Positions 7,301 through 38,600 of a stretch of DNA of 64,000 bases are shown one piece after another. Position 1 is the first letter of the stretch, and the number at the start of each line of letters is the position of its first letter. Both the position numbers and the translations under genes were made by a program. Source of the DNA: an uncultured Rhizobiaceae group bacterium (lineage in GTDB: Bacteria > Pseudomonadota > Alphaproteobacteria > Rhizobiales > Rhizobiaceae); the NCBI GenBank assembly GCA_947501445.1, contig CANMVS010000014.1, positions 62,001-126,000 on the forward strand, read 5' to 3'. Under the pieces are notes generated by a model that worked only from the letters and a program-made list of their open reading frames with translations, was not told where the DNA came from and did no database searches.

Positions 7301-10300
7301 ACATTTCAACCGCGGCGATATCCCGATCCAGTATATCTTCCGCTTTTTGACGCAAATCCATCAGAGCGAAGCTGTCGAGACCAAGAGCAACAAAACCCGT
7401 ATCCGGATCAATGGTTTCGGGATCATCGACGCCCAGAATATCCGCAACGGCCTGCCGCAAGCGCGACAGCAATTCAGCATCTGAGCGGGGGCTTCGTTTT
7501 GTGCCTCGCCGACGTTTTTGCGCAAATTCGGACAGAAAGGGACGGGCTCTGCGGCTCTCGTGTGCTGCCAGAAACGCCGGCCAGCGGATGGAAGCGACGG
7601 CACCATCTCTGCCGCTGGCTGCCAGGGCAAAAGCAAGATCAATCGCCTCATTACCGCTCATAGGATCAAGGCCGATACGGTCAAATACCGCCTCATTTTG
7701 CGCATCCAGCATGCCGCCGCCTTCAACCCGTCCAAATTCAACCACCGTTACCGGCACATGCCTTTGCCGCCGCTTGCTTGCTATGGCGTGCAAAGCGCCA
7801 TTGGCTGCTGCATAGTCCGGCAAGGCACCATCACCCCAAAGGGCGGCGCCCGAACCAAACAGAACGAATTCGCGAACGGGCCAATCAGCTGATAAGTCAT
7901 CAAGTACCTGCGCGCCCAGCAATTTGGGTTCCAACATGTCGGCAGCGGTTCCGTGCCGGATGCCGGCCGCATGAATAATGGCACCAACCGGCAAAAGATG
8001 GGCTTCTATTTCACTGGCCGCCTGTTTCATTGCATCAGCATTGCTTACGTCTGCAGCGAAACACATAATTTTGGCACCGCGCTCGGTGAGATCGGCAAAC
8101 AGGCTGGTATCCGGTTTGCGCGAAATAAGAGCAAATTGCCGCGCACCGCGTTCAAACAGCCGCCGCACAATCTGTCGCCCGAGCCCACCAAAGGCACCTG
8201 TGACAAGGACAGACGTCTGGTGATCATGAATGTCGTTATCTGCAGCATTTTGAAGCAGCAGGCGCCGTAATCTTGGAACCTGCAGGGCCTCATCCCGGAT
8301 GGCAATTTCCGTTTCCTGTCTGCTGGGCGTCAATGCATGTGCCAATAGACGGTAATCATCTCCGCTGGCCGGTGCGGGCAAATCAACGCTGCCGCCCCAT
8401 ACATCCGGCAGAGACAATGCCAGTGACCGCCCAAGCGCAGTGACGGCGGCCGAGGATGCGGATACAACTTCGTCGTTTCCAACGCTGACACCGGATTGCG
8501 TGAGCAGATAGAATTGCCGGTCTGCAGCAGCAGCCAATCTCTTTATGGTTTCAACAGTGTCGGGCAGTTCGGCCAATGGGATATCGGGCTCAGCAACAAA
8601 CAGAACGCAGGGGCTTGTGGGCGTGTCACCATCATCAACGAGAGAAACATCGAGATCCAGTTCACTCCAGACTGCAGCGATTTCATGTGCAATTGCCCTG
8701 CAACCTGCAATCTCCCATTGACCAGAAATCTGAGCCGCAGGCGTTGGCAAATCCACCCAGTCAACCTGATAGGCCAGCCCATCGTCCTTGCTCAACCGTG
8801 GCGAAATGGCCAATCCTTCAACCCAGTGGCGCTTGCCGTTGAAGACGGTCCGAGGTAGCGGTGGTCGCGCATTGCTCTGATCAGGCGCCTCAGCCAAAAC
8901 AACATGCACATTGGTACCACTTGCACCAAAACTGCTTACCGCGGCATGGGGCTGGCCTTTGGCAAATGGTGTCGGCACCACGGGCACACTCAGGTGTTGG
9001 GCGCTCTCATCAATCAGCGGGTTGATGCTATTGAAATGAAGACCGGGGGGCGCTGTTTTGCGACGCAGGGCCGTTATCGCACGAATCAGCCCACCAACAC
9101 CGGAGGCTGTTTCCGCGTGGCCGATGTTGGTTTTGAAGGACCCGACCAGAGTCGGTGAACCACAATCAGTTCCAAGTGCAGCCACAAGCGCCGATGCTTC
9201 TATCGGATCACCAAGTGCTGTGCCGGTTCCATGCAGCTCAACATAGCCGATGGATGACGCTTCGATGCCCGCATTCGAGACGGCTGCTCGAATAACCTGC
9301 TCCTGCGCTGCACCGCTGGGCACCGTCATTCCACTTGCCCGGCCATCGTGGTTCATTGCCGACCCCTTGATCACAGCAATGATGGGATCGCCATCGGCAC
9401 TGGCAGCAGAAAGCGGTTTTAGAACGACCAGGCCACAACCTTCCGCCCGCACGAACCCATCGGCAGCGCGATCAAATGTGTGACACCGACCACTGGCAGA
9501 CAACATGCCCGCACGCGCCAGAATAACTGAGGTTTCAGGCGTAAGCATCAGATTGACCCCGCCAGCCAGCGCCATTTCGCATTCACCCTCTCTCAGCGCC
9601 CGGCATGCCAGATGCAGAGCTGTCAGAGAAGAAGAACAGGCCGTGTCCACCACCAGAGCCGGTCCCTCAAGACCAAGTGAGTGCGCGATGCGTCCGGCGG
9701 CGGTATTGCTGGGAAGTCCCATTATGGCTTGCGGTGCCAGTTGGTCAAAACCGGACCGTTTAACCATTTCAGCATAGTCAGACCCGGTTAGTCCGGCAAA
9801 AACCCCGGTGCGTGTACCCGACAGAGACCTGGGATCAATGCCGCCATGTTCCAGCGCGTGCCATGCCGTTTCCAGCAAAAGGCGTTGTTGGGGGTCCATA
9901 TAGGCAGCTTCAACCGGTGCAATATTGAAAAAGCCCGCATCAAAAACATCCACCTTATCAAGAAAGCCACCCCAGCGCCCGGGTGTGTCGCCATCGTTCT
10001 TGTCCGCCTCGCTGAAGTGACGCCAGTTCCAGCGCTCAGCAGGGACCTCACCAATAGCGTCCAGCCCTGAAAATACAGCTTCTTCGAAACTGTCAAGACT
10101 GGTAATGCCGCCGGGATAACGGCAGCCGACCCCGATAATCGCTATCGGTTCATCTGTATTGTTCTGAGGGTTTGCAGGCACACGATCAATGCCCTGTGTG
10201 GGATTGAGATATGCCGTCAGCCTGCCAATCGTCGGGTGGGAGAACAAAGCCGCAGCCGGGATTTCCCGGTTCAACGCTTTCCCGAGTTTTTGACGCAGGC

Positions 10301-13300
10301 GCACCGCGCTCAGTGAATCAAGACCAAGCTCAAAAAAGCCTCTGTCATTGGGAATATCCGAAGCATTTTCATAGCCGAGTGCCTCGGCAAGCTGCCGTCT
10401 GACAATATCCTCTGTGTCATTTCCGGCAATTACCAACTCAGCGGCTTGGCCTGTTCCTGTCGGGTGGACCTGCGTTTCGCCCGGCATGGCGCGAAAAAAG
10501 CCACGCTGTTGGTTGAAATCAACAACGGCTCTGAATCGTGACCAATCCACATCGGCTATTATTGCCTGGGGCTCTTCACCGGCTGCCAGTTGCCAGGCGG
10601 TGATGAAGGCTGTTTTTGCATCCATACTCCGCAGACCCATTTCCGCCAGCCGTTGATCTTCATGTGCATCAAGCAACCCGCGAACATCGAAACGACCAAA
10701 TCCGGCTGAAAATGTGCGTCGACCCCTGGCGGTTCTCTCATGGGCGAAAGCATCCATCGCGGCATTGGCCGCAGCATAGGCAGCATTGCCCCTGCCACCC
10801 CAGGTCCCTGCCGCTGAGGAAACCAGCAACATCAAATCAAGATCAACATTGCGCGTCAGTCCATCAAGGACCCGTGCACCGGTCAGTTTGGGTGGCAGGG
10901 CAATATCCAGAGCATCAGCATCATTTCCAGCCGCATGAATAATGGCGGCAAGTGGTCTTTGAAGACGATCAAGTGCCGCGCCAATGGCAGCTTCATTCGT
11001 GACATCTGCAAAAAGAAGATCAAGGTGAACACCGCGCAATCTCATTTTTGCCAGGGCAACTTCAGTTGCTTCATTGGGTCGTGTTCGCCCCATAAGAGCG
11101 ATATGTGAGGCACCAAGATCAACTAGCGCTTCGGCAAAGGAGAGCCCGAGCGTTCCGAAGCCACCGGTTATCAGATAAATCGCATCAGAGCGTATTGGCA
11201 GCCCATTGTTGTGCGCAGCTTCATCAATCGGCACCAGTCTGGCCGCCTGCGGCCCGTTCTGCTTTATGCGAATACGGTCTTCATTGTCTGGCAAATAGGG
11301 GAGCTTGGCGGCATCCTCAAAATTGTCCAGCTGCACAAAACCGCCATTCCTGTTTGATTGCGAAGCAAGAAGGCTAAGCAGGTAGGCCCGCTCCAGTTCA
11401 TAGCGTGGCTTTTCATCGTCGCAATGTGTGATCAGACGGACACGTCCAAACCGTGTTTGTGCGCTGACCGCGTCCAGCAGTGATGCGATATCCATGGCAG
11501 GCGCTGTTGGTTCCAGCAGCCAAGTTTCACGGAATTCTCCCGCATCAGGCAGTTGGTTGCTCACGAAAACATTGTGCGTTGTTGCCTGCAGTGCCTGCGC
11601 AACGGACCTGGCATTCACACCGTCGCCGACGATGAGAAAGGCATCGTGCGACGGCGCGGCACGCGCGACAATGATACTTTGTCGATCCCCGTCAGATTTG
11701 ACGGCAACTGCATCAAATCCACTCGACAGCAATGCCGCGCGCCATTGTTCCGTGCTTAAAAGCGCAGAATTTGTTCTGACTGCATCATCAAACAGCCACC
11801 AGCCGTCCAGCGTTCCAAACACCAGATCAAGCCAACCCGCTTCGCCGGTAATTTCACCAAGGATCAGCAGCCCACCCGGGCGAAGCGTGGCGCGCACATT
11901 GGCCAAAGTCGCCTGAATATCGCGTGTGGCGTGGAGAACATTAATCGCCATAACCGCATCGAAGGGCTTTGCCTGTAATTGTTCTGGTGGTTCCTGCTCA
12001 ATATCCAGGAGTGCCGTTTCGAACCCGTCTGTCGCACCAAACCGCTCTTCAGCGCTCGAAAGGAATGCCCGTGATATGTCAGAAAATACGTATTGTGCAT
12101 CTTTGGGCAGGTGCTTTAAAAGCTGTGTTGCTGTTGCGCCCGTGCCTGCCCCGATCTCCAGAAAGCGCCGCCCGCCAGCGCTGCAGATTTGCTGAAAGAC
12201 CTGTCCAACCCAATGCGACTGCGTTGCGGAAAATGCCGCCTTTGAATAAAGCGCTGCCAGCAGATCAGACTCTCCATCGGGAAACAAAATGGACAGCGGG
12301 TTGGTCTTGCCGGACAAAATGTCAGGCAGCGCTTGCCCAACACGGGTAATCAATTGACGCTCGATATCATATCCGGCGAGCCTACCTGCATCGCCGTCGG
12401 AACCTTCAGCCAACCGTTGCAACGCGGCGCGTTGGCGTGTTTGAACAAGATTGGGATCAACCCCAGATGGCATGTTTGCCAGTGAATTGGATGCGTATCC
12501 CGCTGCCAGAGCGTCAAGCTTCGATGTGCCCGTGGCCGGCGGTGCGTCGTCAAGGGCACTCATCAAACCGTCGGGTTCGCCAAGTTCAACCAGTGGATCA
12601 GGGAGCGGAATATAGGCTACCTGATAGCCGAGCGATCCATTGTCATTTGTCTTCGGCCAATATTGCTTGCGTTGAAATGGATATGAGGGAAACACTGTTG
12701 ATTGGCGCACGAAGGCGGCGTCGAACGCCTCCCAATCGACACTTACACCAGCCTGCCAAAGTTCAGCGACCAATTGGCATAGCGCTTCACAAACCGGTTC
12801 CTGACCAAGATGAATGGCGTGAGCACCAAAGCTGCAGGAAACACAATTGGTTTCATTGACCGCACCCGTTCCTGCTTCGCCGGATTGTTCATAGGCAATT
12901 GTGTTGTCAATACATTGGGCGATTTCACCGGCTGCCCCCTGCCCTTTGACAGCAAGTGCAACACCCCAGTGCCTGAGAATTTTGCCAATCAATACGCCTG
13001 CCGCAAGACTGGATTTTTTGTCGGCTGTCAAAGCACTGTTTGTGGAATCGTGCAATTGCAGATCGAAAGCGGTTTCCACACCATCAGCAATTTCATTGAT
13101 CGCCGGGTCTATGGAGCGCCAATGGGAAAGGCCATCCAAATTCGGCATGCCGCCGTCAAAACACAAAGTAGCGTTTTGTGCTTCCGGTGAAGCGTTTGAA
13201 CCAGCCACTTCATCGCGCGGCAAATCAGTAGCGATCGCGCGCAGTTTCATCTGCAGGGTTTCAATGTCATTGGCTACAACGGCTACCCGAACGGAAAGTG

Positions 13301-16013
13301 CATCACGCCGACCGGCTGTGTGGCAGATATCCGGCAACGTCGCACTGTCCAATGCAATCACCCGCATGATCATCTCGGACAGTGCCCTGTCGGTCTTTGC
13401 CGAAAGCGGCAGAATATGGGTGGACCGATCATCCTTTGCCGGTGTCAATTCGACACCATGCACTCTCAGGTGATCAAACAGCTGCGATATGGCCTCGTCG
13501 TCATTGCCATGGCGAACCAGTGTCGCCAGCGCGACAGCAGAACCTTCACGCTCGGACAGATCACGCGCCATGCCGGAGACAAGCAGCGGATGCGGTCCAA
13601 TTTCCACAAAGGCGGCGTCCGTGTAGGTTTGCGATAGGGCTTCAATTGCATCTGCAAAACGAACAGGTTCTCGCAAGTTGCGCCCAAAATAGGCCGCGTC
13701 CATGGACAGGCCGGACAGGCGGTCTGCGGTGACACTGGAATAAAATGGCGTATCACCTGCATGGGTTTTCATGCCCGCAAGAGCGTCAATCAACTCTGGA
13801 ACACAGGGGTCCAGCGCCGGGCTGTGATAGGCGATATCAACGTTGATGGGCACAACATCAATGCCACGCGTTTTCAGATGTTCCGTGACCTGCGCAATCT
13901 GCGCACGCGGCCCTGACAGATTTACCGACTCGCGATCATTGGAACCGGCAATCACAACGTCGCGGAAAGATGCAATCTCCTTTTCGGCCTCACTCCAGGT
14001 CAGCCTCACCAATGCCATGGATCCACTGCCGGCAATGGATGATTGCAACCTGCTGCGATGATAGACAATGGCGCTGGCGGTGGCGGCTGAAACAATACCT
14101 GAAGCATAGGCCGCGGCCACTTCACCGAGACTGTGACCAACCACAGCGCTCGCTGAATAGCCATTGCTGGTCAACAATCGGGTCAATCCGGCCTGCACTG
14201 CAAAGGTCAGCATCTGGTTCAATACGGTCTGCGGCAAAGATGCAGGACTATCAATTTGCGCAAGACAGGCAAATAGATCAATCTTTGCAATATCTTTAAA
14301 AGGCACCTCCAGGGGCGCAAGTCCGGCACGAAAGGCCGGATCGCTCAACAGGCCGCGGGCCATGCCAGGCCATTGCCCGCCATTGCCACTATAGGCAAAA
14401 ATGATCGGTCGCTTGCCGGTGCCGGAAACAGGACCAACAGATATCGGCTGCGGCGGCGCTTCGGCAATCAGATGCGCATTGGTACCACCAAAGCCAAAGG
14501 AACTGACCGCGACCCTCGCGGGTCGGTCCCGCACATGGGTAAAGGGTTCAGCCTCGACCGGTATCCGCAGATTAAGCCCCTCGAAATCGATGTGCCGATT
14601 GGCCTCAACAAAATGCAGGGTTGGTGGAATGCGTGATGCCCCCAATGCCATGACGGATTTTATAAAGCCAGCCACACCGGCGGCAGCTTCAAGATGACCA
14701 ATGTTGGTTTTCACCGAACCAATGGGCAGCCGGTCTCCGCTTGGTCTTGCCTGCCCGTAAACCCGCCCGATAGCACCTGCTTCGATTGGATCGCCCAAAG
14801 GTGTGCCAGTGCCGTGAGCCTCGACATAATCCACCTCACATGCATCAATGCCCGCATCGTTGAGGGCATCCCTGATAACCTGAACCTGTGCATCAGGGTT
14901 GGGCGCGGTTAACCCGTTGGAGGGACCGTCATTATTGATTGCCGAACCACGTATAAGCGCCAGCGGTTTCAGTCCGCGTCTTTGTGCTTCAGCCAGCGGG
15001 ATTAAAACCACAACCCCGGCACCCTCGCCGCGAACATAGCCGTTGGCAGCCTGATCAAATGCTTTGGAAAGGCCGTCCGGTGCCATCGCGCCGAACTTGG
15101 TCATGGCGATCGTGCTGTCTGGAGAGACAATGAGATTTACACCGCCAGCCAAGGCAAGTCGGCTCTCACCGGCCCGCAAACTCCGGATCGCCAGATGTAT
15201 GGACATAAGCGACGCCGAACAGGCGGTATCCACCGTCATGCTTGGTCCGGTGGCACCCAGAAAATAGCTGATCCTATTGGCGATGATGCCAATGTCACGA
15301 CCGGTTGCGGAGTGCTGGTTCATGGACGATGCATCCGCAAACAGCCCTCCATAATCGCTCCACATGGCGCCCATGAAAACGCCGGTGCGCGTTCCATTGA
15401 CCGACATTGGCCTGATACCCGACCGTTCCAGCGCCTCATAGGCCAGCTCCAGCGTCACCCGCTGCTGGGGGTCCATTTCCAATGCTTCGCGTGGAGAAAT
15501 ACCAAAAAACGCGGCGTCAAATCTGTCTATGTGATCGAGAAAACCGCCTTTTTTGGTCGACATGCGACCCGGTGCCTGGGGATCATCATCGAAATATTGC
15601 TCGATATGCCAACGGTCGCGTGGCACAGGCCCAACCAGATCTAGCCCGTCATCCAACAATCGCCAGAATTCTTCCGGACTATTGGCGCCTGGAACACGGC
15701 AGGCCATGCCGACAAGGGCGATTGGTTCTCCCGGCTCCAGTGGACGGATCGCATCACTGTCAGAGGGAGTGACCTCACCAAGGAGAAAACCGGCGATTTT
15801 ATTAATCGTTGGCCGGTCCCAAATCAGGGTTTGCGGCAGGTCCCGGTTCATCGCCTTTGACAGATCTGCGATAAAACCTGCGGCAAGATGAGACGTCATG
15901 CCAAAGACACTCAAGCGTTCGTCGGGATCAATCGGATGCGTCAGATTGCAGGCTTTTTGTACCAACCCGGACAGGCACTCCACAATTTCAGCCCGCGACC
16001 CCAAGCTTGCCAT
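1314..16013 (-). CDS. PKS-2: three-module type I polyketide synthase (4899 aa)
   Basis: Domain order with approximate residues. N-terminal ACP (10-80, carrier Ser41 in FGMTS). Module 1: KS (93-515, Cys265 in DTACSASL), AT (530-850, GHSLGE at about 628), a dead AT-like domain (950-1115), a C-methyltransferase (SAM motif EIGAGTGAT at about 1283), KR (GGFGTLG at 1613, YAAAN at 1748), ACP (GLDSL, about 1895). Module 2: KS (1954-2370), no AT, KR (GAFGGLG 2603, YAAAN 2731), ACP (GLDSF 2878). Module 3: KS (2938-3345), AT (GQGSQ 3436, GHSLGE 3524, NGFHS, so probably malonyl), a degenerate DH (3790-4040), an ER-like domain (4205-4500), KR (GAQGGVG 4521, YAAAN 4659), ACP (GLDSL 4808) and an acidic C-terminal docking helix. 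The leading ACP suggests this is where the chain starts. The DH lacks the HxxxGxxxxP motif and the ER lacks its usual Lys-containing motif, so module 3 should stop at the hydroxyl. Start: the ATG overlaps the thioesterase stop (TAATG), indicating translational coupling. Confidence 0.95.
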   Translation of the reverse strand: MASLGSRAEIVECLSGLVQKACNLTHPIDPDERLSVFGMTSHLAAGFIADLSKAMNRDLPQTLIWDRPTINKIAGFLLGEVTPSDSDAIRPLEPGEPIALVGMACRVPGANSPEEFWRLLDDGLDLVGPVPRDRWHIEQYFDDDPQAPGRMSTKKGGFLDHIDRFDAAFFGISPREALEMDPQQRVTLELAYEALERSGIRPMSVNGTRTGVFMGAMWSDYGGLFADASSMNQHSATGRDIGIIANRISYFLGATGPSMTVDTACSASLMSIHLAIRSLRAGESRLALAGGVNLIVSPDSTIAMTKFGAMAPDGLSKAFDQAANGYVRGEGAGVVVLIPLAEAQRRGLKPLALIRGSAINNDGPSNGLTAPNPDAQVQVIRDALNDAGIDACEVDYVEAHGTGTPLGDPIEAGAIGRVYGQARPSGDRLPIGSVKTNIGHLEAAAGVAGFIKSVMALGASRIPPTLHFVEANRHIDFEGLNLRIPVEAEPFTHVRDRPARVAVSSFGFGGTNAHLIAEAPPQPISVGPVSGTGKRPIIFAYSGNGGQWPGMARGLLSDPAFRAGLAPLEVPFKDIAKIDLFACLAQIDSPASLPQTVLNQMLTFAVQAGLTRLLTSNGYSASAVVGHSLGEVAAAYASGIVSAATASAIVYHRSRLQSSIAGSGSMALVRLTWSEAEKEIASFRDVVIAGSNDRESVNLSGPRAQIAQVTEHLKTRGIDVVPINVDIAYHSPALDPCVPELIDALAGMKTHAGDTPFYSSVTADRLSGLSMDAAYFGRNLREPVRFADAIEALSQTYTDAAFVEIGPHPLLVSGMARDLSEREGSAVALATLVRHGNDDEAISQLFDHLRVHGVELTPAKDDRSTHILPLSAKTDRALSEMIMRVIALDSATLPDICHTAGRRDALSVRVAVVANDIETLQMKLRAIATDLPRDEVAGSNASPEAQNATLCFDGGMPNLDGLSHWRSIDPAINEIADGVETAFDLQLHDSTNSALTADKKSSLAAGVLIGKILRHWGVALAVKGQGAAGEIAQCIDNTIAYEQSGEAGTGAVNETNCVSCSFGAHAIHLGQEPVCEALCQLVAELWQAGVSVDWEAFDAAFVRQSTVFPSYPFQRKQYWPKTNDNGSLGYQVAYIPLPDPLVELGEPDGLMSALDDAPPATGTSKLDALAAGYASNSLANMPSGVDPNLVQTRQRAALQRLAEGSDGDAGRLAGYDIERQLITRVGQALPDILSGKTNPLSILFPDGESDLLAALYSKAAFSATQSHWVGQVFQQICSAGGRRFLEIGAGTGATATQLLKHLPKDAQYVFSDISRAFLSSAEERFGATDGFETALLDIEQEPPEQLQAKPFDAVMAINVLHATRDIQATLANVRATLRPGGLLILGEITGEAGWLDLVFGTLDGWWLFDDAVRTNSALLSTEQWRAALLSSGFDAVAVKSDGDRQSIIVARAAPSHDAFLIVGDGVNARSVAQALQATTHNVFVSNQLPDAGEFRETWLLEPTAPAMDIASLLDAVSAQTRFGRVRLITHCDDEKPRYELERAYLLSLLASQSNRNGGFVQLDNFEDAAKLPYLPDNEDRIRIKQNGPQAARLVPIDEAAHNNGLPIRSDAIYLITGGFGTLGLSFAEALVDLGASHIALMGRTRPNEATEVALAKMRLRGVHLDLLFADVTNEAAIGAALDRLQRPLAAIIHAAGNDADALDIALPPKLTGARVLDGLTRNVDLDLMLLVSSAAGTWGGRGNAAYAAANAAMDAFAHERTARGRRTFSAGFGRFDVRGLLDAHEDQRLAEMGLRSMDAKTAFITAWQLAAGEEPQAIIADVDWSRFRAVVDFNQQRGFFRAMPGETQVHPTGTGQAAELVIAGNDTEDIVRRQLAEALGYENASDIPNDRGFFELGLDSLSAVRLRQKLGKALNREIPAAALFSHPTIGRLTAYLNPTQGIDRVPANPQNNTDEPIAIIGVGCRYPGGITSLDSFEEAVFSGLDAIGEVPAERWNWRHFSEADKNDGDTPGRWGGFLDKVDVFDAGFFNIAPVEAAYMDPQQRLLLETAWHALEHGGIDPRSLSGTRTGVFAGLTGSDYAEMVKRSGFDQLAPQAIMGLPSNTAAGRIAHSLGLEGPALVVDTACSSSLTALHLACRALREGECEMALAGGVNLMLTPETSVILARAGMLSASGRCHTFDRAADGFVRAEGCGLVVLKPLSAASADGDPIIAVIKGSAMNHDGRASGMTVPSGAAQEQVIRAAVSNAGIEASSIGYVELHGTGTALGDPIEASALVAALGTDCGSPTLVGSFKTNIGHAETASGVGGLIRAITALRRKTAPPGLHFNSINPLIDESAQHLSVPVVPTPFAKGQPHAAVSSFGASGTNVHVVLAEAPDQSNARPPLPRTVFNGKRHWVEGLAISPRLSKDDGLAYQVDWVDLPTPAAQISGQWEIAGCRAIAHEIAAVWSELDLDVSLVDDGDTPTSPCVLFVAEPDIPLAELPDTVETIKRLAAAADRQFYLLTQSGVSVGNDEVVSASSAAVTALGRSLALSLPDVWGGSVDLPAPASGDDYRLLAHALTPSRQETEIAIRDEALQVPRLRRLLLQNAADNDIHDHQTSVLVTGAFGGLGRQIVRRLFERGARQFALISRKPDTSLFADLTERGAKIMCFAADVSNADAMKQAASEIEAHLLPVGAIIHAAGIRHGTAADMLEPKLLGAQVLDDLSADWPVREFVLFGSGAALWGDGALPDYAAANGALHAIASKRRQRHVPVTVVEFGRVEGGGMLDAQNEAVFDRIGLDPMSGNEAIDLAFALAASGRDGAVASIRWPAFLAAHESRRARPFLSEFAQKRRRGTKRSPRSDAELLSRLRQAVADILGVDDPETIDPDTGFVALGLDSFALMDLRQKAEDILDRDIAAVEMFETPTIQGLINYSPDMQTEPEMATAVPAVRTSSHEAIAIIGAGLRLPGGVVDLPSLRDFLEGGGDAVGTPPESRASETLPQGNGSLKAGWLNAVDQFDADLFGISPREALQIDPQHRLLLEVAWEAVQHSGRAPADLKGTGTGVYVGLTGLEYAKILRDRGVTDAHSVGGGYLNAAAGRISHAFGLAGPSIAVDTACSSAATAIHLAAQALNNSECNLALAGGANLILSEDTNAQLNAAQMLSPNHRCASFDAQADGYVRAEGVGLVLLKRLSDAQVDGDRVLAVIRGSAMNHDGASGGYTVPNGAAQRAVITSALAAAQVDAVDVSYVEAHGTGTTLGDPIEAHALSDTYGSAERPLLVGSIKTNIGHAEAAAGIAGLMKLIVAAQTEQLPQHLHFDQLNPQIELASDTIRIVGKACEWPMRNERRIAGLSAFGASGTNVHLIVEAPEKPVLTPAVETPMLLALSAARETDFAAVSARVLAGRDFQRLCLESSLSQASLPFRQAVIVQTVDEAKAALESGTIRRAGQPRVAFLFTGQGSQAAGMGRQLYQTEPVFRQMIDRIAGHIDELLPVPLLQILNEPSQSLDDTALAQPALFAFEMGLAALWRSWGIEPQAVLGHSLGEISAATHAEMLELEAAARFVVERGRLMASTATGEMAAVLADEPTVRAGLGEGVSIAAINGPENIVISGPSEAMSASVAKFEDMMIPVRPLPVINGFHSALMEPVLDELEAAAEQLNIQDAKVPVFSNLDGRERRQLNAQDWRRQVREPVAFAAGLNNIVAYGCDFLLEIGPRPILTALSRGTVSDASFLPGYNLANPQEAIMHAAGALWQAGSPVDLPAVLGAVPRDAEPLAAYPFRPVSHWPPVGDGPKKSVAVPTGVRTFFSNSFASPSFEGRLSVDAVGPADWPELETSGYMAHVGVLLSLLVQEQDVDGVRIEDASFVSPLFLETDKCLQKHARPDGQTTLHQENADGTWTTIFTATPVVGNWTANPLFDEGGEASMDHTAFYDSIERHGLQLSDTLKPIRRLRGSDGRVIANLNPFGDLERRWFGLPSGVYEAVAQTASALFDFEECARVAAGWEDMVRTGNLPVEPYVIQAQRTGEQSADVVLQGADGNVLVRVKGLTMMPVKQAAKTPWHGVARWQKISHRMSTPGKANIHAVGALAPSIENLLHQAFETAGADAPEVIVFAPETDEEPSCLAKMAHHVSHLPQASRLIVLTHGTVSPRGLADQTAAAGAGLWGLARTIAFERADIELRVVDLDPESDPVEILAAELDDTSDETAVSWRAGHRYAERLEARTTDDVRVPHALMGIVEGQADIAAVQRRSPKAGEIEIAVTVAAPNFRDVLVAAGTHPPTEGFGSECAGQVVAIGEGVEAYQMGQLVVAYMPDGTGTIRSHLTVNARLVRACPDNLSPSIAGAGLLSAMVARHAILDIGQVQKHKTVLIHQACSGVGLAAMAMAKRLELSIVATAHPDKHAFLRQHGVKFLVNSREAFSKSVRAITAGQGVDFAIGAFGSLASEARQLLKPDGRLVDLTNGPLGRSRVNIDRLAKDKPTAFATLMDEALVDLQHSAFVLPVDQVPLSSAADTFELLRNGTVIGRKAFAIADPVHHWHCALITGAQGGVGRALAFHLVRSGVKKLVLIDHVGISDTMVEELRHEGAIVEVHRADVTDYEQMRAIVQSVEPLNAVIHTAASLIDGQLADLGADAFETVFAAKVKGARVLDALTRNNSLQNFIAFSSVTALLPSAGQAAYAAANSALGLLVQNRRSAGYHATSILWGPWSVGIGARLGEGAQEAWRRFGIEPMEPDSACAVFDLCAGGSIDPVIVDVNWSTYEKIAAASPLLEHMADPVRRGAGDRSKVEPKVDPNVSVRDLVNGCLRNVLKLPQDQEIDPLRPFREMGLDSLLAAEFSDSLSTRLGHRVPGTLVYNHPHVDDVVEFLSQTSDGRLSKGVQSATLPLPGVKTSDLDDSDTLDLLEQQLAEVERLLGNKI
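12665..13170 (-). other. Degenerate second acyltransferase domain inside PKS-2 module 1
   Basis: After the intact AT of module 1 the protein repeats the start of a KS-AT linker (LPLSAKTD ... LPDICHTAGRR) and then an AT-like stretch. In it the usual LWRSWG-GHSxGE segment reads ILRHWG followed by GQGAAGE, so the catalytic Ser and the His next to it are gone. The second half of the fold is missing. The sequence resumes at the typical post-AT linker (AELWQAGVSVDWEAF ... FPSYPFQRKQYWP). It is an in-frame fossil within a long open reading frame. It may still serve as a structural spacer before the methyltransferase. Confidence 0.75.
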
Positions 16014-16798
16014 TAGCCTGATGCCCGTTGCCTGGTCAGGTCAAGGCAGGCTTCCAATTCCGAGGCCAGCGCGCCAAGCACCGGATTATTGGGCTGGTGC
16101 AGGTAAAAATGACCGCCAGCAAATTCTTTAGCACCACGCCATTGTGTCGTAAACTCGGCCCAGTTTTGCAGCAGCTCCAACCGCGCACGCGCATCTTCCC
16201 TGCCGCAAAATGCACCAAGCGGTACGTCCAACGGAGTTTCATCGACGTAGGTGTGGGTCTCCAGCATTTTCAAATCGGCGCGTATAACCGGCAGAAAAAG
16301 CGACATTAACTCAGGTTCTTCGCGCAATATCACTGGAACACCACTAAATCGCCGGTCGAGCTCGTCAATGAACTGTTGATCAGGCAACTGATGCAGCATG
16401 GATTCATCAGAAATATGCGAGGGCGGTGCGCGCCCTGATACGAGCAGGCAAAACGGCAATACGGCCTGCCTTCGCCGCATTTCTCTTGCCGTTTCATAGG
16501 CCAGCAGCGCGCCCATGCTGTGGCCGAAAAACGCGAATGGTCGCCTATCCTCATCACAAGCAATGGCCTGCGCCACGGCTTCGACAACCTGCTTCAAATC
16601 ATCGACAGGTCTTTCCGCCATGCGCCCTTCACGTCCCGGAAGCTGCAACGCCGTCACCTGCGCATCAAAAAAACTGCCCCACCGGAAATAAGCAGAAGCT
16701 GCTCCACCTGCATGAGGAAAGCAGAACAGCCTGAAGCGCGCGTGCGGTTTTTTGTAAGGTGTAACGAACCAGGCACTGTCAATCGCTACATTACTCAT
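16013..16798 (-). CDS. Type II thioesterase of the PKS/NRPS cluster
   Basis: A 261-residue alpha/beta hydrolase of the stand-alone thioesterase II family, which removes wrong or stalled acyl groups from carrier domains of PKS and NRPS lines. The family signature FCFPHAGG lies near the N-terminus. The catalytic triad can be placed as Ser94 (GHSMG), Asp202 (CGRED) and His230 (GGHFYL). The ATG at 16798 (MSNVAIDSAWF) is chosen because family members begin shortly before the first beta strand; an upstream TTG at 16831 adds 11 residues without an obvious ribosome site. It is the first gene of the minus-strand biosynthetic transcript. Its stop overlaps the PKS-2 start by one base (TAATG), so editing enzyme and megasynthase are made together. 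Confidence 0.93.
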   Translation of the reverse strand: MSNVAIDSAWFVTPYKKPHARFRLFCFPHAGGAASAYFRWGSFFDAQVTALQLPGREGRMAERPVDDLKQVVEAVAQAIACDEDRRPFAFFGHSMGALLAYETAREMRRRQAVLPFCLLVSGRAPPSHISDESMLHQLPDQQFIDELDRRFSGVPVILREEPELMSLFLPVIRADLKMLETHTYVDETPLDVPLGAFCGREDARARLELLQNWAEFTTQWRGAKEFAGGHFYLHQPNNPVLGALASELEACLDLTRQRASG

Positions 16799-17202
16799 GG
16801 AACTTCGAAACTCTCTCGTGCCAGATTTCAATTGAACTTAACCGACTGATCAATCTGCAAATTATGTCTGAATATTACGCCATATGAGGCGTCATTGGCT
16901 TAAGCTACAGATAAGGCATCGTTGAAATACAAGCAGAAACGCCATGCGAAAACACTCCGCGCACAGAACCAGCCTTGAATTGGGTTTTTGGAGAATTGGC
17001 CGCCAGATATCCGGGCGCCACACCTGGTCTTATCGACCCAAATCTGGCCCTATGGATATTGACACCAAGCCACACAATGCTTCACGGCAGCACCGCAAGA
17101 AACGCCCAACCCCATACCGCGGAATACCGCCTGGCATCTCTACTCACCATCACTGACTATCGTGCATTATCCATAACTGGACGCCCGCAGTCATCGATAG
17201 CG
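16799..17202. other. Gene-free region upstream of the TEII/PKS-2 transcript
   Basis: About 400 bases with no convincing gene. It should hold the promoter of the leftward thioesterase-PKS transcript and the end of the leftward transcript of the small gene at 17203. One exact dyad, ACGCC-N6-GGCGT, is present at 16877-16892, about 80 bases before the thioesterase start. I see no clear -35/-10 pair. A plus-strand reading frame here (16975-17274) has no recognisable motif, runs into the small gene and was not accepted. Confidence 0.5.
16877..16892. promoter_or_regulatory. Inverted repeat upstream of the TEII-PKS operon, possible operator
   Basis: Perfect 5-base arms (ACGCC / GGCGT) around an AT-rich 6-base centre, about 80 bases upstream of the thioesterase start codon. 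Size and position would suit a dimeric regulator. The arms are short and could occur by chance. No regulator gene lies in the window to pair with it. Confidence 0.25.
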
Positions 17203-17555: not shown

Positions 17556-17563
17556 ATCAGTGC

Positions 17564-32100: not shown

Positions 32101-35100
32101 CCTCGTGATGCAAACATTGACCTGGCTGGACGGACGATTGGAGATTTATGGCCGTATTGACGGATCACGCGATTGGGTTCGCCATGTTTGTGGACGCATC
32201 AATAGTGCCGACACCGCTGACGTCGGGGTTCTGGATCTGAGTGATCTGGAGGGGCGCCTGTTGGAAGAAAGCGATGGTCCGAATACGTTTTTCCAGATGC
32301 TGGGTAATCGCGGCATTGAACTTGGAGACAGTTTTCGCGGCCTTCGACGGCTGTGGCGCGGCAATGCAGAAGCCATGGGGGAAATCGAGCAAACAGGCGA
32401 TAACAGTACGTTGGATGTTCTGCTTCACCCTACCGCTCTGGATTCATGTTTTCAGATATTGGGCGCAACTTTTACCGGCGACGACAATGGCAAGGGGTTT
32501 TTGCCGCTGTCGCTTGATCGCATGGAGATTTACCGTCAGGCACCCAAACGCTTTCGCTGCCATGCAACGATTGAAAGTGCGGCGAATTCCCCCGTGGCCA
32601 TCGGCCAATTCACCTTGTGTGATCTGAGCGGACAGATATTTGCGCGTGCCAGCGGCTTGCAGATAAAACAGGTTGAGGCACCCAAAGCCAGTGACCCTGT
32701 CAGCGATATGATATTGGGGGTTGAATGGGTGCCCTGTGACATCCAGCAGCCAGGATGGTCAAACCCAACGCAAATCGCATCGCTGGTCAATCGGGCTGCG
32801 GCGAATATATCCCCATTAGAAGAAAATGGCCTGTCTGAAGGACTGGATGCGCTTGCAGCACACCATGCCCGCGTGGCTGTCGAAACATTGCCGGATGTCT
32901 CGGTCGTCGCTGATGATCGCCAACGGCTTTACCAACGCCTTCGGTCACTCGCCGCGAAAGACAACGGGATGTCGTCGCAAGAATTGCTTGCGGCATTTCC
33001 ACATAATCAGGCCGAGATAGGATTGGTCGATCGGTGCGGTGCAGCACTACAAAGTGCGCTTGTTGGGATGCCCAATGCCGTGGAAAATCTCATTTCAAAC
33101 AGCGATGAGCTAAACAGCAATGTCTATTCTGATAAGGGTCTTGCTGCGCGGACAAACGAATTTGCTGCAGCCGCATTGGCGGCCGCACTTGGTCGGCGCG
33201 CTGATCACAAACTGTCCATCCTTGAGGTGGGTGCGGGAACCGGCGCTACGACACAGGCACTTTTGAGGCAAATCCCGCAGTCGGTTGATGTGGAATATCT
33301 CTTTACCGACATTTCCAACGGTTTCATTCACACGGCAGAACAACAATTTGCCGATAATCCAAAGGTGCAATTTGCGTTATTTGATCTCGAACAGGATCCG
33401 GCCACGCAGGAACTGCCGATGCGTCGCTTCGATATCATCGTGGCTGCCAACGTCATTCACGCAACCAGAGACATTGCCCAATCACTGAACCATATTCAAA
33501 AATTGTTGTTGCCCGGCGGCCTGCTCATGCTCGTTGAAAGTACGTTGAAACAGGACTGGTGGGATATTGTATTCGGACTGACCGATGGATGGTGGCGCTT
33601 CGAAGATACAGATTTACGGCCGGATCATCCGTTGCTGGGTCAGTCTGCCTGGCCAGAAGTTCTCAAATCAGCCGGATATATTGACCCGGTCACCGTCAGT
33701 GTGGATGCTGCCGCGCGCCAATCCATCATTCTGGCGAAAGCGCCACTGAGCGCACCTGTTATTGCCGTCCATGACGGGTTTGATGGTCAAGCCAAAACGG
33801 TAGCACTTGCGCTTGCTGAGGCATTGACGCAAGCCGGAACAGATGCGATCGTCACCGAACCCGAGGCCGCGATAAACCTCATAGGCCAAAAAGATGGACA
33901 GGTAATCATCTACACCGGGGGCATTTCCGCACCCTATCAACGGGCGCTGAAACAGGCCTTTGACCTGTCAAGAGCAGTTGTTTCGAGCGCAGATGCGGCA
34001 ATCACCTTCGCGGTACATGGTCTTCAGCCGGATACCAATAGCGAAGATAACAAAATAATCACGCACCATACAGATGATGCTCTCGTCAGTGCCGCCGCTG
34101 TGGCCGGATTTGCACGTGTATTTGCACTGGAACACCCTGAAACGGGCGCTGGTATTATCAATCTGGATCCAGCCAGTACGACACTGCAAGGGGACTTGCT
34201 GACGGCCATCGCAGCCAATGCGTCTGGCGAACGCGAAATTTCAATTCACGCCGGCAAACCTCATACAGCCCGCCTTGTTCCTCAGCCGCTTGATGCCATC
34301 GCAGCGCCCGAGTTGGACGCAAGTGGTGCTTATCTCATTACCGGGGCTTTCGGTGGACTTGGCTCGCATCTGGCAGCCTGGCTTGGTGAACATGGTGCTG
34401 GCCAACTGATCCTGATAGGACGAAACGCCCCCTCGCCTGAACTGGCGGCAACCTTGTCTGCCTGTGCAAAGCAAGTTGACCTGCATGAATTGGACGTATG
34501 CGACGCTGATGCGCTTGGTCGAATTGTCGCTGAGGCCGGTCAACAGCTCAAAGGGGTGTTTCACCTTGCAGGAACAACGGCAGATGGGGCCATCATCTCA
34601 CAGGATTGGTCGCGGTTTTCATCTGTTCTTGGTTCCAAGGCCGACACAGCATTGGTACTGGATGAACTGACACAGACGCTACCACTTGATCATTTCGTAC
34701 TGTTTTCAACTTCCGCTTCACTTATCGGCAATCCCGGTCAGGCCAATCACGCCGCAGCGAATGCAATACTCGATGCGATTGCTGGAAAGCGGCGCGCCTG
34801 CGGACTGCCGGGCCTGTCGATAAACTGGGGTGCCTTTTCGCAGGCCGGTGCCGTTGTGCGTCAGGATCAACTTGAATCCATGTCACAGCGCGGCGTCAAA
34901 CCAATCACCATTGAACAGGGTCTGGATGCACTTGCCCGCGCCATGCAGGCCGACACAGCTAATATTGGCGTTGTGAATATTGATTGGCCGATGTTTCTCA
35001 AAGGTACCGAAGCTGCGTTCCCGCCATTTCTGTCCCATTTCCGCGACCAGTTGACAGTAAAGCCAACGCAAAGCCGTTCAGCACCCCGCAAGTCGCAGGC

Positions 35101-35527
35101 AGATTTTTCTGCGTCCCTGGAAAATATCGCGCAAGAAGAAAGGCAATCATTGCTTGCGGGTCTGATCGCCATTGAAGCAGCGGCTGTCCTTGATATGAAA
35201 GATCCGGCCAAAATTGATCATGATCAGGCGCTCAATGAGCTGGGACTTGATTCTCTGCTGGCGCTGGAGCTGCGCAACAGACTTGGTGAGGCCAGTGGAC
35301 AAAAGCAACTGGCCACCCTGCTTTTCGATCATCCGTCCATTGCGGCGCTCGCCGAGCATATTGATAATCAGCTCTCCGATAAACCATCAGGCAGTGATAA
35401 ATCCGGAAGACCTGCTCCGATTACACCACAGGACCGCGCGTCCGACGAAGAGCTCGAATCCATGTCGGACGCCGAGATTGAAGAATGGCTGAACGCTGAA
35501 TATACCGCTGCCACTGGTTTGCAATAA
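29150..35527 (+). CDS. PKS-4: single-module type I polyketide synthase KS-AT-DH-cMT-KR-ACP (2125 aa)
   Basis: The frame opens at TTG 29150, 20 bases inside the end of PKS-3. A second TTG at 29156 has AAGGA at better spacing, and a GTG lies at 29189; the start is therefore uncertain by up to 13 codons. The N-terminal docking helix (LDQLQRAAFAVRDMREKLEAE) leads into a KS (about 45-480, Cys219). This is the only plus-strand module with an intact AT (560-880, FTGQGSQ, GHSVGE with Ser647, and TAFHSP, which points to malonyl-CoA). The DH is canonical (His941 in HVVFGDVVVP, Asp1098 in LDSCFQ). The C-methyltransferase has EVGAGTGATT near 1360. The KR has GAFGGLG (1729), but His1867 replaces the catalytic Tyr (NHAAAN). 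ACP Ser2035 lies in GLDSLL, and the tail is acidic and helical. Expected output: an alpha-methyl unit, unsaturated if ketoreduction occurs. Confidence 0.95.
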   Translation: MNLPDIENKATAEVNKTAGTLDQLQRAAFAVRDMREKLEAEKARAHAPIAIIGMGCRFPAAPDIGTFWRSVINGVDAIRQVPESRWDSDAYYDPDPDAPGKTSSLWGGLIDDVDLFDAEFFGISPREAKSVDPQQRLLLETSWRALEDAAIPIERLPARHTGVYVGISTNDYASLLADRTDQNWIDAHASLGNSVAVAAGRISYTLGLQGPSMSVDTACSSSLVAVHLAMKALRTGEIDVAISAGVNLTLTPELTIGFSKARMMAADGRCKTFDARADGYVRGEGCGVVILKRLEDALRDGNRVRAVLIGSAVNQDGRSNGLTAPNGPSQTAVIKAALADAHVQAGQVSLIEAHGTGTALGDPIEAQALSDVFAGRESEAAAPYVASVKTNIGHLEAAAGMAGLIKTALALENGKVPPHLHFQELSPHINADQFPLRIPISSKPMPDVDGRQIAGVSSFGFSGTNAHVVLEAPPKPAEAPTRKDVEVLTISGSDAQAVGELVRQTCEHLEDPDVDFPAFAATMTSGRSTFPYRMAVTASTAAEAAKALRDKQPECPPEDPLVGFLFTGQGSQYQNMASGLMSEPRFRETIERCDSVLNGIISPILKGGTLPEGRTDLVQPLLVTLEYAMADLWRSWGVQPAAVIGHSVGEIAAAAFAGALNLEDALRFVAERGRLMESRADLGGMAAVLASAEKVSTLIEGSDVVIAALNAPDNTVISGTTRGLAQVMTRLENAAIPVVPLQVSTAFHSPVLDPVLDDIEAAAVAMATGRAHIPVINNLHAEACDRFDAAYWRAQAAAPVRFREGLQCLADRGCSLFVEIGPQPVLSNFGRTILPEATFVPSLRRGVEDARTIADAAAQLFTAGVPVNFSAFCGRHKVVDAPGHPFRGERYWPDAAPANVIPLSTPTVDQSLVGTVIDTPGEPVIHQRVVSTEALPFLADHVVFGDVVVPGAMYAVMGIAVSGAAPGNVEDLVFEAPMTVPIDGLVMQTLTWLDGRLEIYGRIDGSRDWVRHVCGRINSADTADVGVLDLSDLEGRLLEESDGPNTFFQMLGNRGIELGDSFRGLRRLWRGNAEAMGEIEQTGDNSTLDVLLHPTALDSCFQILGATFTGDDNGKGFLPLSLDRMEIYRQAPKRFRCHATIESAANSPVAIGQFTLCDLSGQIFARASGLQIKQVEAPKASDPVSDMILGVEWVPCDIQQPGWSNPTQIASLVNRAAANISPLEENGLSEGLDALAAHHARVAVETLPDVSVVADDRQRLYQRLRSLAAKDNGMSSQELLAAFPHNQAEIGLVDRCGAALQSALVGMPNAVENLISNSDELNSNVYSDKGLAARTNEFAAAALAAALGRRADHKLSILEVGAGTGATTQALLRQIPQSVDVEYLFTDISNGFIHTAEQQFADNPKVQFALFDLEQDPATQELPMRRFDIIVAANVIHATRDIAQSLNHIQKLLLPGGLLMLVESTLKQDWWDIVFGLTDGWWRFEDTDLRPDHPLLGQSAWPEVLKSAGYIDPVTVSVDAAARQSIILAKAPLSAPVIAVHDGFDGQAKTVALALAEALTQAGTDAIVTEPEAAINLIGQKDGQVIIYTGGISAPYQRALKQAFDLSRAVVSSADAAITFAVHGLQPDTNSEDNKIITHHTDDALVSAAAVAGFARVFALEHPETGAGIINLDPASTTLQGDLLTAIAANASGEREISIHAGKPHTARLVPQPLDAIAAPELDASGAYLITGAFGGLGSHLAAWLGEHGAGQLILIGRNAPSPELAATLSACAKQVDLHELDVCDADALGRIVAEAGQQLKGVFHLAGTTADGAIISQDWSRFSSVLGSKADTALVLDELTQTLPLDHFVLFSTSASLIGNPGQANHAAANAILDAIAGKRRACGLPGLSINWGAFSQAGAVVRQDQLESMSQRGVKPITIEQGLDALARAMQADTANIGVVNIDWPMFLKGTEAAFPPFLSHFRDQLTVKPTQSRSAPRKSQADFSASLENIAQEERQSLLAGLIAIEAAAVLDMKDPAKIDHDQALNELGLDSLLALELRNRLGEASGQKQLATLLFDHPSIAALAEHIDNQLSDKPSGSDKSGRPAPITPQDRASDEELESMSDAEIEEWLNAEYTAATGLQ

Positions 35528-35618: not shown

Positions 35619-38600
35619 ATGAACTCCACGCCACTCACGCCACTTCAAAAGGCTGCCATTACCGTTAAATCGCTGCGTGACCGCGTTGATGGACTGGAGC
35701 GTGCCCGCTCGGCACCCATAGCAGTTATTGGCATGGCATGTCGCCTTCCCGCACACAGCAATACGCCAGAGGCACTGTGGGAGGCATTGAAAAATGGCCG
35801 GATCGGCAGCATTGAGGTGCCGTCGGCGCGTTGGGATGCCGATGAGTTTTATGATCCCGAGCCCGGTGTTGCAGGCAAGATGTATGTCAAAAAAGCCTGT
35901 TTCATCGACAATGTGGATGAATTCGATCCGTTGTTCTTTCGTATATCTCCACGCGAGGCAGTCGGGATCGATCCCCAGCAAAGATTGCTGTTGGAAGTCG
36001 TGCATGAGGCGCTTGAAGATGCAGGCATCCCGCCTCCTTCACTGTCCGGCAGTCTGACCGGAGTATTTTTAGGCATAAGTACCAATGACTATTCCGCCCT
36101 GTTATCGAAAACCGCTCATGGATCAGGCAGCAATGCCGTCGCTGGAGCCGGCAATGCCGCCAGTGTTGCCTCGGGGCGAATCTCGTACACCTTTGGTTTC
36201 CAGGGACCATGTTTTGCTGTCGATACCGCTTGCTCCTCCTCGCTCGTTACGGCCCATCTTGCAGTCCAGTCGTTGCGCGATGGCGAGAGCAACCTGGCGC
36301 TGGTCGCCGGCGTCAATCTGATGTTGACCCCGGACATCAGTATCAATTTTTGCCAGGGACGTATGTTGTCACCTGACGGTCTTTGCAAGACATTCGACGC
36401 TGACGCCGACGGTTATGTCCGCGGAGAAGGTTGCGGCGTTCTGGTGCTCAAACGATTGGACGATGCCATTGCAGATGGTGATCGGGTTCTTTCGGTCATT
36501 TCCGGTTCGGCAATCAATCAGGACGGGAAAAGCGCCGGCCTGACCGCACCCAATGGCGCTGCTCAGGTAGCTGTTATCAATCGGGCCCTGGCCAACGCCG
36601 GACTGCAACCTGATGCCATTGATTTTATTGAAGCCCACGGTACCGGAACCTCACTCGGTGACCCGATTGAGATACATGCCATGAAGGCGGTTTTTGACAA
36701 TCGCAAAGGTCCACTTTCCGTTGGCTCCGTAAAAACCAATATTGGGCATACAGAAGCTGCTGCCGGGGTGTCCGGGCTGATCAAGGCAGTTTTAATGTTG
36801 CAAAATCAAACCATTCCGCCGCATCCAAGTTTCAAAAACTTCAATCCGCACATTGATCCGGGTGATCTCAACGTAGAAATTGCCCAGTCTGAAAGGGCCT
36901 GCACGCTGAACCATATTGGCGTCAGTTCATTCGGCTTCAGTGGAACGAACGCCCATATTATCGTTTCTGCAGCCCCTGAAAACCTGCCCGGTGCGGCATT
37001 AAGCGAAACGACGGCGGCTCCGCAATTGCTGATCACGGCGAAAAGTCAGGCAGCACTGGAAACACTCATAGGACGATATCGTAATCTGCTTGAGGAGCCA
37101 GGTGTTTCATTCCGGGATGTCTGCTACAGCGCATCCATTGAGCGGGCGCGCTATAAATGGTGGGTCGCAGTGGACAGCGCCGTTGAACTCAACAATGCAA
37201 CGCCGAGCGACGCCCCCTTGCCCAAAGTCGAACCACAAATGGGCAACCGGGTCAGATTGCCCAAAACGCCGTTCGAGCGTCAGCGGTACTGGATTGAAAC
37301 CGGCGGAGATGCGGAACCTGCCGCGACACCCGAAGCCCTGCCTGTGGCAAATCTTCCGGCAATGCCTGCTGCCGGGCAACATCCACTGCTTGGCCGTAAA
37401 ATCATTTTGCCGTTTTCAAACGAGAGCCGGTTTGAAAACCAACTGGCAGCAAATCAAATCGGTCTGGCGTTTATTCTGGAGCACCGGGTCTCGGGACAAC
37501 CGGTTCTGCCCGGTACAGCCATGATCGAAATGGCGCTTGCTGCCAATCCGCAAAGCGCCATCAAGGATATGCTCTTTATCGCGCCAGTTATCGTACCTGA
37601 AAGTGCACCACTGCTGGTGCAATTCATACTTGATACAAATGATGAATTTCGTATTGTCAGCGTCGATCCTGAAACCCCGCAGAACGCCGTATTGCATGTC
37701 ACTGGTCGCTACACGGCCCGTTCAAATTCGCCGGTACAGGTTGATGTTCCCGATGAGACCGGAACAACGATCGTTGAAGTCGATGATTTTTACGCTTCCC
37801 TTGCTGGCCATGGCGTGGACTATGGACCAACCTTCCGACGGTTGAATACCATCCGGCGGCTGGACGGCGCAGCTTCTGCTGCGCTTGTCCATCTTGCAGA
37901 TCCGACATTTATCGTGCATCCGGCAGTTCTCGACAGCGCATTGCAGTTGGTCGCAGCGGCGCTCGATGCGAGCTCCGGGCCGCTCATGGTTCCCGCCGGG
38001 TTCGACCAGTTGGTTCACAATCATGCACCGGGGCCTAACGCAAAAGTCTACGCGCAGGCAAACCGAGTAAAAAATCAGGTCGAAGCAGATGTCCGTATTT
38101 TCGATTCTGAAGGCCTGGCCATTGAAGTATCCGGTATAACATTCAAACGCGCCGGTGCACTTGCCGATTACGGCTTTCATAAGCTCGACTGGCAGCATCA
38201 GACGCTCACGGACGGATTGCTGCCACCCGTAGGGTTTGCCGAGGCTGCAGATCTGGCAAGATTGCTGATCGATCACAATATCGGCCAATCAGAACATTAC
38301 GCGATCTCCGATTATGATGATGCGGAAGAAGCCCTCAACAAAATGGCAACCCTATACGCCATTGAGGCGCTGGAGCGGCTGGGAATGGCGTTCGAACCGG
38401 GCACTGAAGGTACGCTGGGTGCCCTGACCGAGAGCCTTGGCATTGTCGACAAGCACAAGCGATTGTTCAAACATTTGATCGGTTTCCTGGTTGAAGATGG
38501 TGTGCTCGAGCAAAACGGGCGACGATGGAAAATCCTGAAGTCACCCGGCAGACAACAACCGGATGTTGATGCGCTCACCAGCGCCTACCCGGCTCTCGCC

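What the first reader, a model, noticed from the sequence alone, without database searches (positions are those of the whole stretch)
8840..37305. Four of seven complete modules lack an acyltransferase but keep cis-AT linker scars
PKS-2 module 2, PKS-3 modules 1 and 2, and PKS-NRPS-5 module 1 have no GHSxG AT. Each still ends the KS region with the typical post-AT linker (RHW, PFDRKSYW, PFDRTPYW, PFERQRYW). That points to secondary AT loss from a cis-AT ancestor rather than a classical trans-AT system. Extender units must be supplied by the intact ATs of PKS-2 or PKS-4 or by an AT outside the window.
Basis: partly seen in the sequence, partly recalled or inferred. Interest (0 to 1): 0.8.

Follow-up and report, generated by a model that had tools for sequence, protein, structure and literature searches.

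The report
Polyketide line with missing acyltransferases
A bacterial assembly line that builds a small molecule has lost, in most of its stations, the part that feeds in new building blocks, so something else in the cell, most likely an everyday fat-making enzyme, has to feed it; it may be a line caught part-way between two known designs.

Summary
Confirmed and extended. Four of the seven complete modules in the window have no acyltransferase (AT); the window holds three ATs. The cluster runs 24 kb past the left edge: 11 ketosynthases (KS), six without AT. So four likely extender ATs serve 11 modules.

Secondary loss from a cis-AT ancestor is favoured by KS trees and identities, though stricter tests are borderline. 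How many separate losses occurred is open.

The only discrete AT found in the 99%-complete draft genome is FabD of fatty-acid synthesis. My best mechanism is malonyl supply in trans by FabD, as reported for barnesin and pseudotetraivprolide; sharing of the four integrated ATs is the rival. Neither was tested. Lines mixing cis- and trans-AT modules are known (473 of 8,799, PMC10394414): a new variant of a known kind.

The parts
1314..16013 (-).
15783..15968 (-). N-terminal ACP of the split loading module
   Evidence: PF00550 30.5 bits, residues 16-77
13542..14405 (-). F1 AT, GHSLG, IAYH motif; probable starter AT; 15 residues after the KS, before the linker
13194..13430 (-). F1 KS-AT linker (LD), lying after the AT
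   Evidence: 47 bits; PF22621 at the same place
12777..13193 (-). 139-residue stretch where the Enhygromyxa twin has its second (extender) AT; no AT match here
8883..10148 (-). F2 KS, AT-less; linker also gone; sister of the AT-bearing F3 KS
8808..8876 (-). F2 post-AT block (RHW), directly after the KS
   Evidence: 12.4 bits
4875..5705 (-). F3 AT, malonyl-like (NGFH)
   Evidence: motif
16013..16831 (-). Discrete thioesterase gene
   Evidence: PF00975 142 bits
18613..29169 (+).
18715..19989 (+). G1 KS, AT-less, cis-AT side of the KS trees
20014..20694 (+). G1 linker (20014-20232), unassigned 114 residues (20233-20574), post-AT block (20575-20694)
   Evidence: no AT signal above shuffles
24142..25389 (+). 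G2 KS, AT-less
25420..25821 (+). G2 linker and post-AT block, 29 residues apart
29150..35527 (+).
35619..46064 (+).
35715..36977 (+). I1 KS, AT-less
37017..37298 (+). I1 linker and post-AT block, 26 residues apart
1..1317 (-). Gene E (C14:59973-63317), cut by the window edge: KS without AT, then KR domain and ACP (the latter two read by eye)

Best explanation
This is a hybrid PKS-NRPS assembly line, most likely of cis-AT ancestry (11 KS, two NRPS modules), in which seven elongation modules have lost their extender AT. One of them is a split loading module that keeps what is probably its starter AT. The modules look otherwise complete. The empty ACPs are most likely loaded with malonyl in trans by the only discrete malonyl transferase found, FabD, with possible help from the four integrated malonyl-type ATs. 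Several modules carry a C-methyltransferase (F1, G1, H and I by Pfam; A and D by motif only) and none of the four extender ATs has a methylmalonyl-type motif, so all extenders can be malonyl and losing an AT costs no specificity. Shown: AT absence; the split loading layout without its second AT; FabD as the only discrete AT found. Supported, not proven: cis-AT ancestry. Inferred: that the modules work, and who loads them.
For: KS trees and identities: 23 to 49 of 56 cis references lie closer to each AT-less KS than its best trans reference; nesting the six inside the trans clade p-AU 0.033. AT and KS inventory of the whole genome. FabD identity (TIGR00128, 310 bits, cut-off 260.9) beside fabG-like and fabF genes. 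Catalytic triads kept; long open frames without stops. F1 layout matched by the Enhygromyxa ACP-KS-AT-LD-AT-PA module. AT motifs. FabD shown or indicated to act on AT-less modules elsewhere (passages of PMC12828459, and PMC13096860).
Against: No biochemical data; FabD recognition of these ACPs was not tested. The KS backbone is poorly resolved: a place of the six, or of G1, I1, C1 or F2 alone, beside the 12 trans references is not rejected (p-AU 0.21, 0.25, 0.55, 0.43, 0.45; for I1 the held tree was even 3.3 log units better). The p-AU of 2e-142 for the 110-row set is no clean test, because it also forces together 33 trans references that are not one clade in the free tree. AT-bearing and AT-less modules nearly alternate along the line (P 0.024 or 0.045, post hoc), which fits sharing between neighbours at least as well as FabD. 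The genome is a 110-contig draft, so a discrete AT could be missing.
Confidence: 0.47

Rival explanations
1. The four integrated malonyl-type ATs (F3, D, A, H) load the ACPs of neighbouring AT-less modules in trans.
For: Ten of at most 11 runs when F1 is counted as AT-bearing, P = 11/462; nine runs, P = 15/330, when it is not; all four have malonyl-like motifs; H lies between G and I.
Against: Post hoc and weak; in the second count F1 is not next to an AT-bearing module. A review gives most ATs only about 10-fold preference for their cognate ACPs (passage of PMC11907408), which neither favours nor excludes it.
Confidence: 0.3
2. A classical trans-AT PKS, or one that captured some ATs, whose dedicated AT lies elsewhere.
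For: AT-less modules with linker and post-AT block look like classical trans-AT modules in anatomy (29 of 31); a place of AT-less KS beside the trans clade is not rejected.
Against: KS trees and identities; no discrete AT but FabD found; five integrated ATs; LD-to-PA gaps of 107, 115 and 140 residues (C1, G1, F1) against 6-50 in 29 references, and no linker match in F2.
Confidence: 0.1
3. The line is decaying: AT-less modules are skipped or dead.
For: F2 has lost the linker too; E1 has unusual motifs (DAACAS, HATGT); the G1 module has no near match in seven congeners.
Against: KS triads are kept in all 11 KS, ACP serines are present by reading, and open frames up to 4,899 codons carry no stop.
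Confidence: 0.13

Closest known systems
FabD-dependent AT-less hybrids: pseudotetraivprolide PipC (PMC12828459), barnesin BrnF (PMC13096860); FK228 DepB/DepC (recalled)
   Same: AT-less PKS modules in PKS-NRPS hybrids, no dedicated AT, FabD as the discrete AT
   Different: In the passages read PipC and BrnF appear as single AT-less PKS modules; here seven AT-deficient modules are mixed with four that keep a malonyl-type AT
[quoted passage not shown]
   Same: AT-bearing and AT-less modules in one line
   Different: The passages read do not say which of them have cis-type KS or lack a discrete AT
Split loading modules ACP-KS-AT-AT (miuraenamide MiuA and others, PMC10051162; Enhygromyxa L173 here)
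   Same: N-terminal ACP, KS, AT directly after the KS, linker, post-AT block (as in L173)
   Different: The second, extender AT is absent in F1
Classical trans-AT PKS (bacillaene, thiomarinol type)
   Same: AT-less modules with linker and post-AT block
   Different: KS on the cis side of the trees, no dedicated AT gene found, integrated ATs elsewhere in the line, variable junctions
Algal type I PKSs with displaced ATs (PMC4661987)
   Same: Proposed displacement of integrated ATs in evolution
   Different: Eukaryotic; there almost all multimodular lines are AT-less

Membership tests
Classical trans-AT PKS | KS in trans-AT clades | tested here: not met
   best trees and identities place the six on the cis side; nesting in the trans clade p-AU 0.033 for the six, 0.099 and 0.13 for I1 and F2 alone
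Classical trans-AT PKS | dedicated discrete AT gene in cluster or genome | tested here: not met
   only FabD among 11 AT matches; draft genome
Classical trans-AT PKS | AT-less modules with KS-AT linker kept | tested here: met
   5 of 6 AT-less modules
cis-AT modular PKS | KS of cis-AT ancestry | tested here: met
   the backbone is weak
cis-AT modular PKS | an extender AT in every module | tested here: not met
   4 of 11
FabD-dependent AT-less hybrid | no discrete AT but FabD | tested here: met
   draft genome
FabD-dependent AT-less hybrid | FabD loads the module ACPs | not testable with these tools
   needs purified proteins
Split loading module (F1) | ACP-KS-AT followed by a second AT | tested here: not met
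   ACP, KS, first AT, linker and post-AT block present; second AT absent
Split loading module (F1) | first AT of starter type | tested here: inconclusive
   in a 100/100 clade with the first and second ATs of split modules, away from F3, H, A and D; the clade also holds an FH-motif AT of the own genome (L015); long branch 1.71

The most novel reading that the evidence does not exclude
A cis-AT assembly line caught part-way to AT sharing: modules lost their extender ATs one after another, leaving four integrated malonyl-type ATs that serve neighbouring modules, with FabD as back-up. It would be a living intermediate between the cis-AT and AT-less designs and would show that a dedicated trans-AT need not come first.
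Probability: 0.23. Interest if true: 0.75.

Novelty: new variant of a known kind. Interest (0 to 1): 0.5.

Why it matters
It offers a line in which the order of events in AT loss can be tested: an AT-less and an AT-bearing module whose KS are sisters (F2 and F3) sit in one protein, and a loading module lacks the second AT that a relative keeps. If FabD or a neighbour's AT loads seven modules, the AT gate can be dispensed with wherever only malonyl is needed, which bears on engineering of assembly lines. It also shows that the linker and post-AT motif cannot be used to tell cis-derived from classical trans-AT modules.

Tried and rejected
Rejected: post-AT linker as evidence of cis ancestry (29 of 31 trans-AT reference KS keep LD and PA). 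Rejected: my reading of the stretches between linker and post-AT block in F1, C1 and G1 as decayed ATs; in F1 the model scored only the linker and the post-AT block, and in C1 and G1 its best score there did not stand out from 200 shuffles each (13 and 26 shuffles reached it). Tests for G2 and E1 beside the trans clade and for G1 inside it did not finish. Rejected: a proof of several independent losses; one clade of the six AT-less KS is not rejected (p-AU 0.33), although F2 pairs with F3 (99/86) and the junctions differ. The same test on the 110-row tree did not finish.

Not achieved: structure prediction for F1 and G1; the F1 job was taken but its result was never collected, so a hidden fold in the unassigned stretches is excluded by size and motif only. 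The 16S rRNA search of the own genome found nothing and the host is not identified. A search for the G1 junction (KS end to DH) in 398 genomes of the phylum, own included, listed matches that outside the own genome run no further than query residue 215 of 621, that is just past the linker (part of the match list was not shown).
Full report
What is there. The window is C14:62001-126000 of a 6.82 Mb draft genome in 110 contigs, 99.18% complete. On C14 there are 11 PKS-type KS. AT matches on C14 are five: A, D, F1, F3 and H. C, E, F2, G1, G2 and I1 have none. For comparison, in 78 of the 80 loci that best match the G1 module in named genomes (two Legionella loci left out) 131 of 136 KS with a determinable state are followed by an AT and five are not (one further KS was cut off by an end); 6 of 11 against 5 of 136 has Fisher P 1.4e-5. 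The sample was drawn by similarity to G1, so it is not a general rate.

The fifth module of the window. In F1 the AT follows the KS after 15 residues (KS ends at 521, AT 537-824) and the KS-AT linker lies behind the AT (862-940), before 139 residues without an AT match and the post-AT block (1080-1120). Of 158 AT-bearing modules looked at, own ones included, F1 alone has a KS-AT gap under 60 residues. An ACP precedes the KS. In the genome of Enhygromyxa salina SWB007 (L173) an open frame has ACP (by reading), KS, AT, linker, second AT and post-AT block in this order; four other myxobacterial loci (L169-L172; the KS of L172 is cut) have KS-linker-AT-linker-AT-post-AT. ACP-KS-AT-AT loading modules, whose first AT loads the starter, are described for miuraenamide and other myxobacterial lines (one passage of PMC10051162). 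In a 49-row AT tree the F1 AT lies with the first and second ATs of the split modules in a clade of 18 (100/100), away from F3, H, A and D; its branch is long (1.71), the bootstrap had not settled, and the clade also holds an AT of another PKS of the own genome with an FH motif (L015). The F1 motif is IAYH, where F3, H, A and D have NGFH, TAFH, TAFH and HAFH (that FH goes with malonyl and SH with methylmalonyl is recalled). F1 also has a C-methyltransferase, so its extender is probably malonyl. I conclude that F1 keeps a probable starter AT and lacks its extender AT: five of seven complete modules in the window, seven of 11 in the cluster. That one AT does both jobs is not excluded.

Ancestry of the AT-less modules. 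Trans-AT references were the 33 KS without a following AT and with at least 340 bits in five plasmid loci (Bacillus velezensis, the thiomarinol plasmid pTML1, Azospirillum, Rhizobium lusitanum, Eleftheria; L115-L119); one KS of 320 bits was dropped, and one KS of L119 has an AT and was kept apart. L115, L116, L118 and L119 also hold a discrete AT or part of one. Cis-AT references were 56 of 107 AT-bearing KS, one per locus or two for L120 and L121. In the 110-row quick tree all six AT-less KS lie in a set of 75 with all 56 cis references (SH-aLRT 99). Against a clean split: four trans-AT references lie with KS A1 and the AT-bearing KS of L119, and one (L118_t3) lies on the cis side. In a 48-row careful tree, with 18 of the 56 cis and 12 of the 33 trans references picked by hand, the 12 form one clade (98/94) without any AT-less KS of this cluster; F2 is sister to the AT-bearing F3 (99/86). 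By identity each AT-less KS is nearer to cis references: best 54.8, 43.0, 52.6, 58.3, 56.4 and 58.0% (C1, E1, F2, G1, G2, I1) against 47.4, 38.9, 49.0, 49.1, 48.9 and 48.5% for the best of 33 trans references, and 23 to 49 of the 56 cis references beat the best trans one; among solved structures the best single-domain match of G1 shown is CurL, a cis-AT module (497 bits; that CurL is cis-AT is recalled).

How firm that is. A first AU test on the 110-row set, holding the six with the 33 trans references, gave p 2e-142, but it also forces together references that are not one clade in the free tree. On the 48-row set, holding the six beside the 12 gives p 0.21, G1 alone 0.25, I1 0.55 (the held tree was 3.3 log units better than the free one), C1 0.43, F2 0.45; G2 and E1 did not finish. 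Nesting inside the trans clade, with 10 of the 12, gives p 0.033 for the six (60.7 log units lower), 0.099 for I1 and 0.13 for F2; G1 did not finish. So a place inside the trans clade is disfavoured and a place at its foot is open: cis ancestry is the better reading, not a proof. One clade of the six is not rejected either (p 0.33), so the number of losses is open.

Why the linkers do not tell. With models built from 135 AT-bearing modules, split into linker (LD), AT core and post-AT block (PA), 29 of 31 trans-AT reference KS with enough sequence keep both LD and PA. Of the six AT-less modules here five keep both (E1's PA is weak, E 0.03) and F2 keeps PA only. What differs is the spacing: from end of LD to start of PA it is 6-50 residues in the 29 references, and 21 (E1), 26 (I1), 29 (G2), 107 (C1), 115 (G1) and 140 (F1) here. 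Junctions are thus heterogeneous, as expected for separate deletions, but this is not proof. The 107-140-residue stretches show no AT match; in C1 and G1 the model's best score is no better than in shuffles.

Who loads the modules. Of 11 AT matches in the genome ten lie in open frames of 2,127 aa or more; the eleventh is a 327-aa protein that passes the FabD model (310 bits, cut-off 260.9) and lies beside a fabG-like and a fabF gene. So FabD is the only discrete AT found, in a draft genome. FabD was shown by kinetics to load the ACP of the AT-less PipC module (passages of PMC12828459) and indicated as the trans-AT for barnesin (passages of PMC13096860); for FK228 I rely on recall (one search listed one paper that I did not open, none). 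The rival is sharing of the integrated ATs: in the order F1 F2 F3 E D C A G1 G2 H I, AT-bearing and AT-less modules nearly alternate, 10 runs, P 0.024, or 9 runs, P 0.045, if F1 counts as lacking. This was noticed after the fact, and the order assumes F-E-D-C-B-A-G-H-I. I put FabD first (0.47), sharing second (0.3).

Place among known things. [quoted passage not shown] So the kind is known. What is unusual here is seven AT-deficient modules among 11, KS on the cis side of the trees, a loading module that lacks only its extender AT, and no dedicated AT found in the genome. I did not see this combination in the listings and passages from my ten answered paper searches, which cover open-licence papers only. 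A G1-like module was not seen in the seven congeners searched (best E there between 9e-36 and 1e-31, matches of about FabF length).

Noticed in passing
C14:45004-49086 (L021:10505-14587, minus), outside the window: Gene B is an NRPS with a TubC-type docking domain, condensation domain with a DLLIAD (heterocyclisation-like, recalled) motif, A domain, nitroreductase-like domain and PCP, so an internal thiazole or oxazole is likely.
   Followed up: partly
window 41016-46061: The terminal NRPS module also has a DLIALD motif in its condensation domain, a methyltransferase between A domain and PCP, and a TE, which suggests a terminal thiazoline-like ring.
   Followed up: no
C14:44243-44992 (gene A KS): KS A1, whose gene lies directly downstream of the NRPS gene B, has QSACSS instead of DTACSS and groups with four trans-AT reference KS and one AT-bearing KS of L119, perhaps a hybrid-KS clade.
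   Followed up: partly
window 478-1209 and onward (gene E): The E KS is among the most divergent of the line (branch 1.68 and 1.89; motifs DAACAS and HATGT).
   Followed up: no
window 37326-41018: Gene I has two ACPs in tandem (two PF00550 stretches).
   Followed up: no
window 46167-50450: RND efflux pump and membrane fusion protein genes (AcrB and HlyD families) next to gene I, perhaps product export or self-protection.
   Followed up: no
window 17564-18289: A 241-aa protein with DUF6312 between the two PKS operons.
   Followed up: no
C14:36093-38015 (L021:1594-3516, minus): An ABC1 atypical kinase-like protein at the end of the minus-strand run, overlapping gene A by four bases.
   Followed up: no
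C7:64557-64880: Only one phosphopantetheinyl transferase match (PF01648) in the genome; the matched stretch is nearest to the HetI model, below that model's cut-off.
   Followed up: no
L173 (Enhygromyxa salina genome) and L061 (Streptomyces sp. NRRL WC-3742): The first AT of L173 and the AT of L061, which group together (99/97), have GQSIG in place of GHSxG.
   Followed up: no
L026, L045, L050: Cis-side KS without AT also occur in a Phycisphaerae MAG, an Anammoxibacter MAG and Enhygromyxa salina, so sporadic AT loss is not confined to this line.
   Followed up: partly
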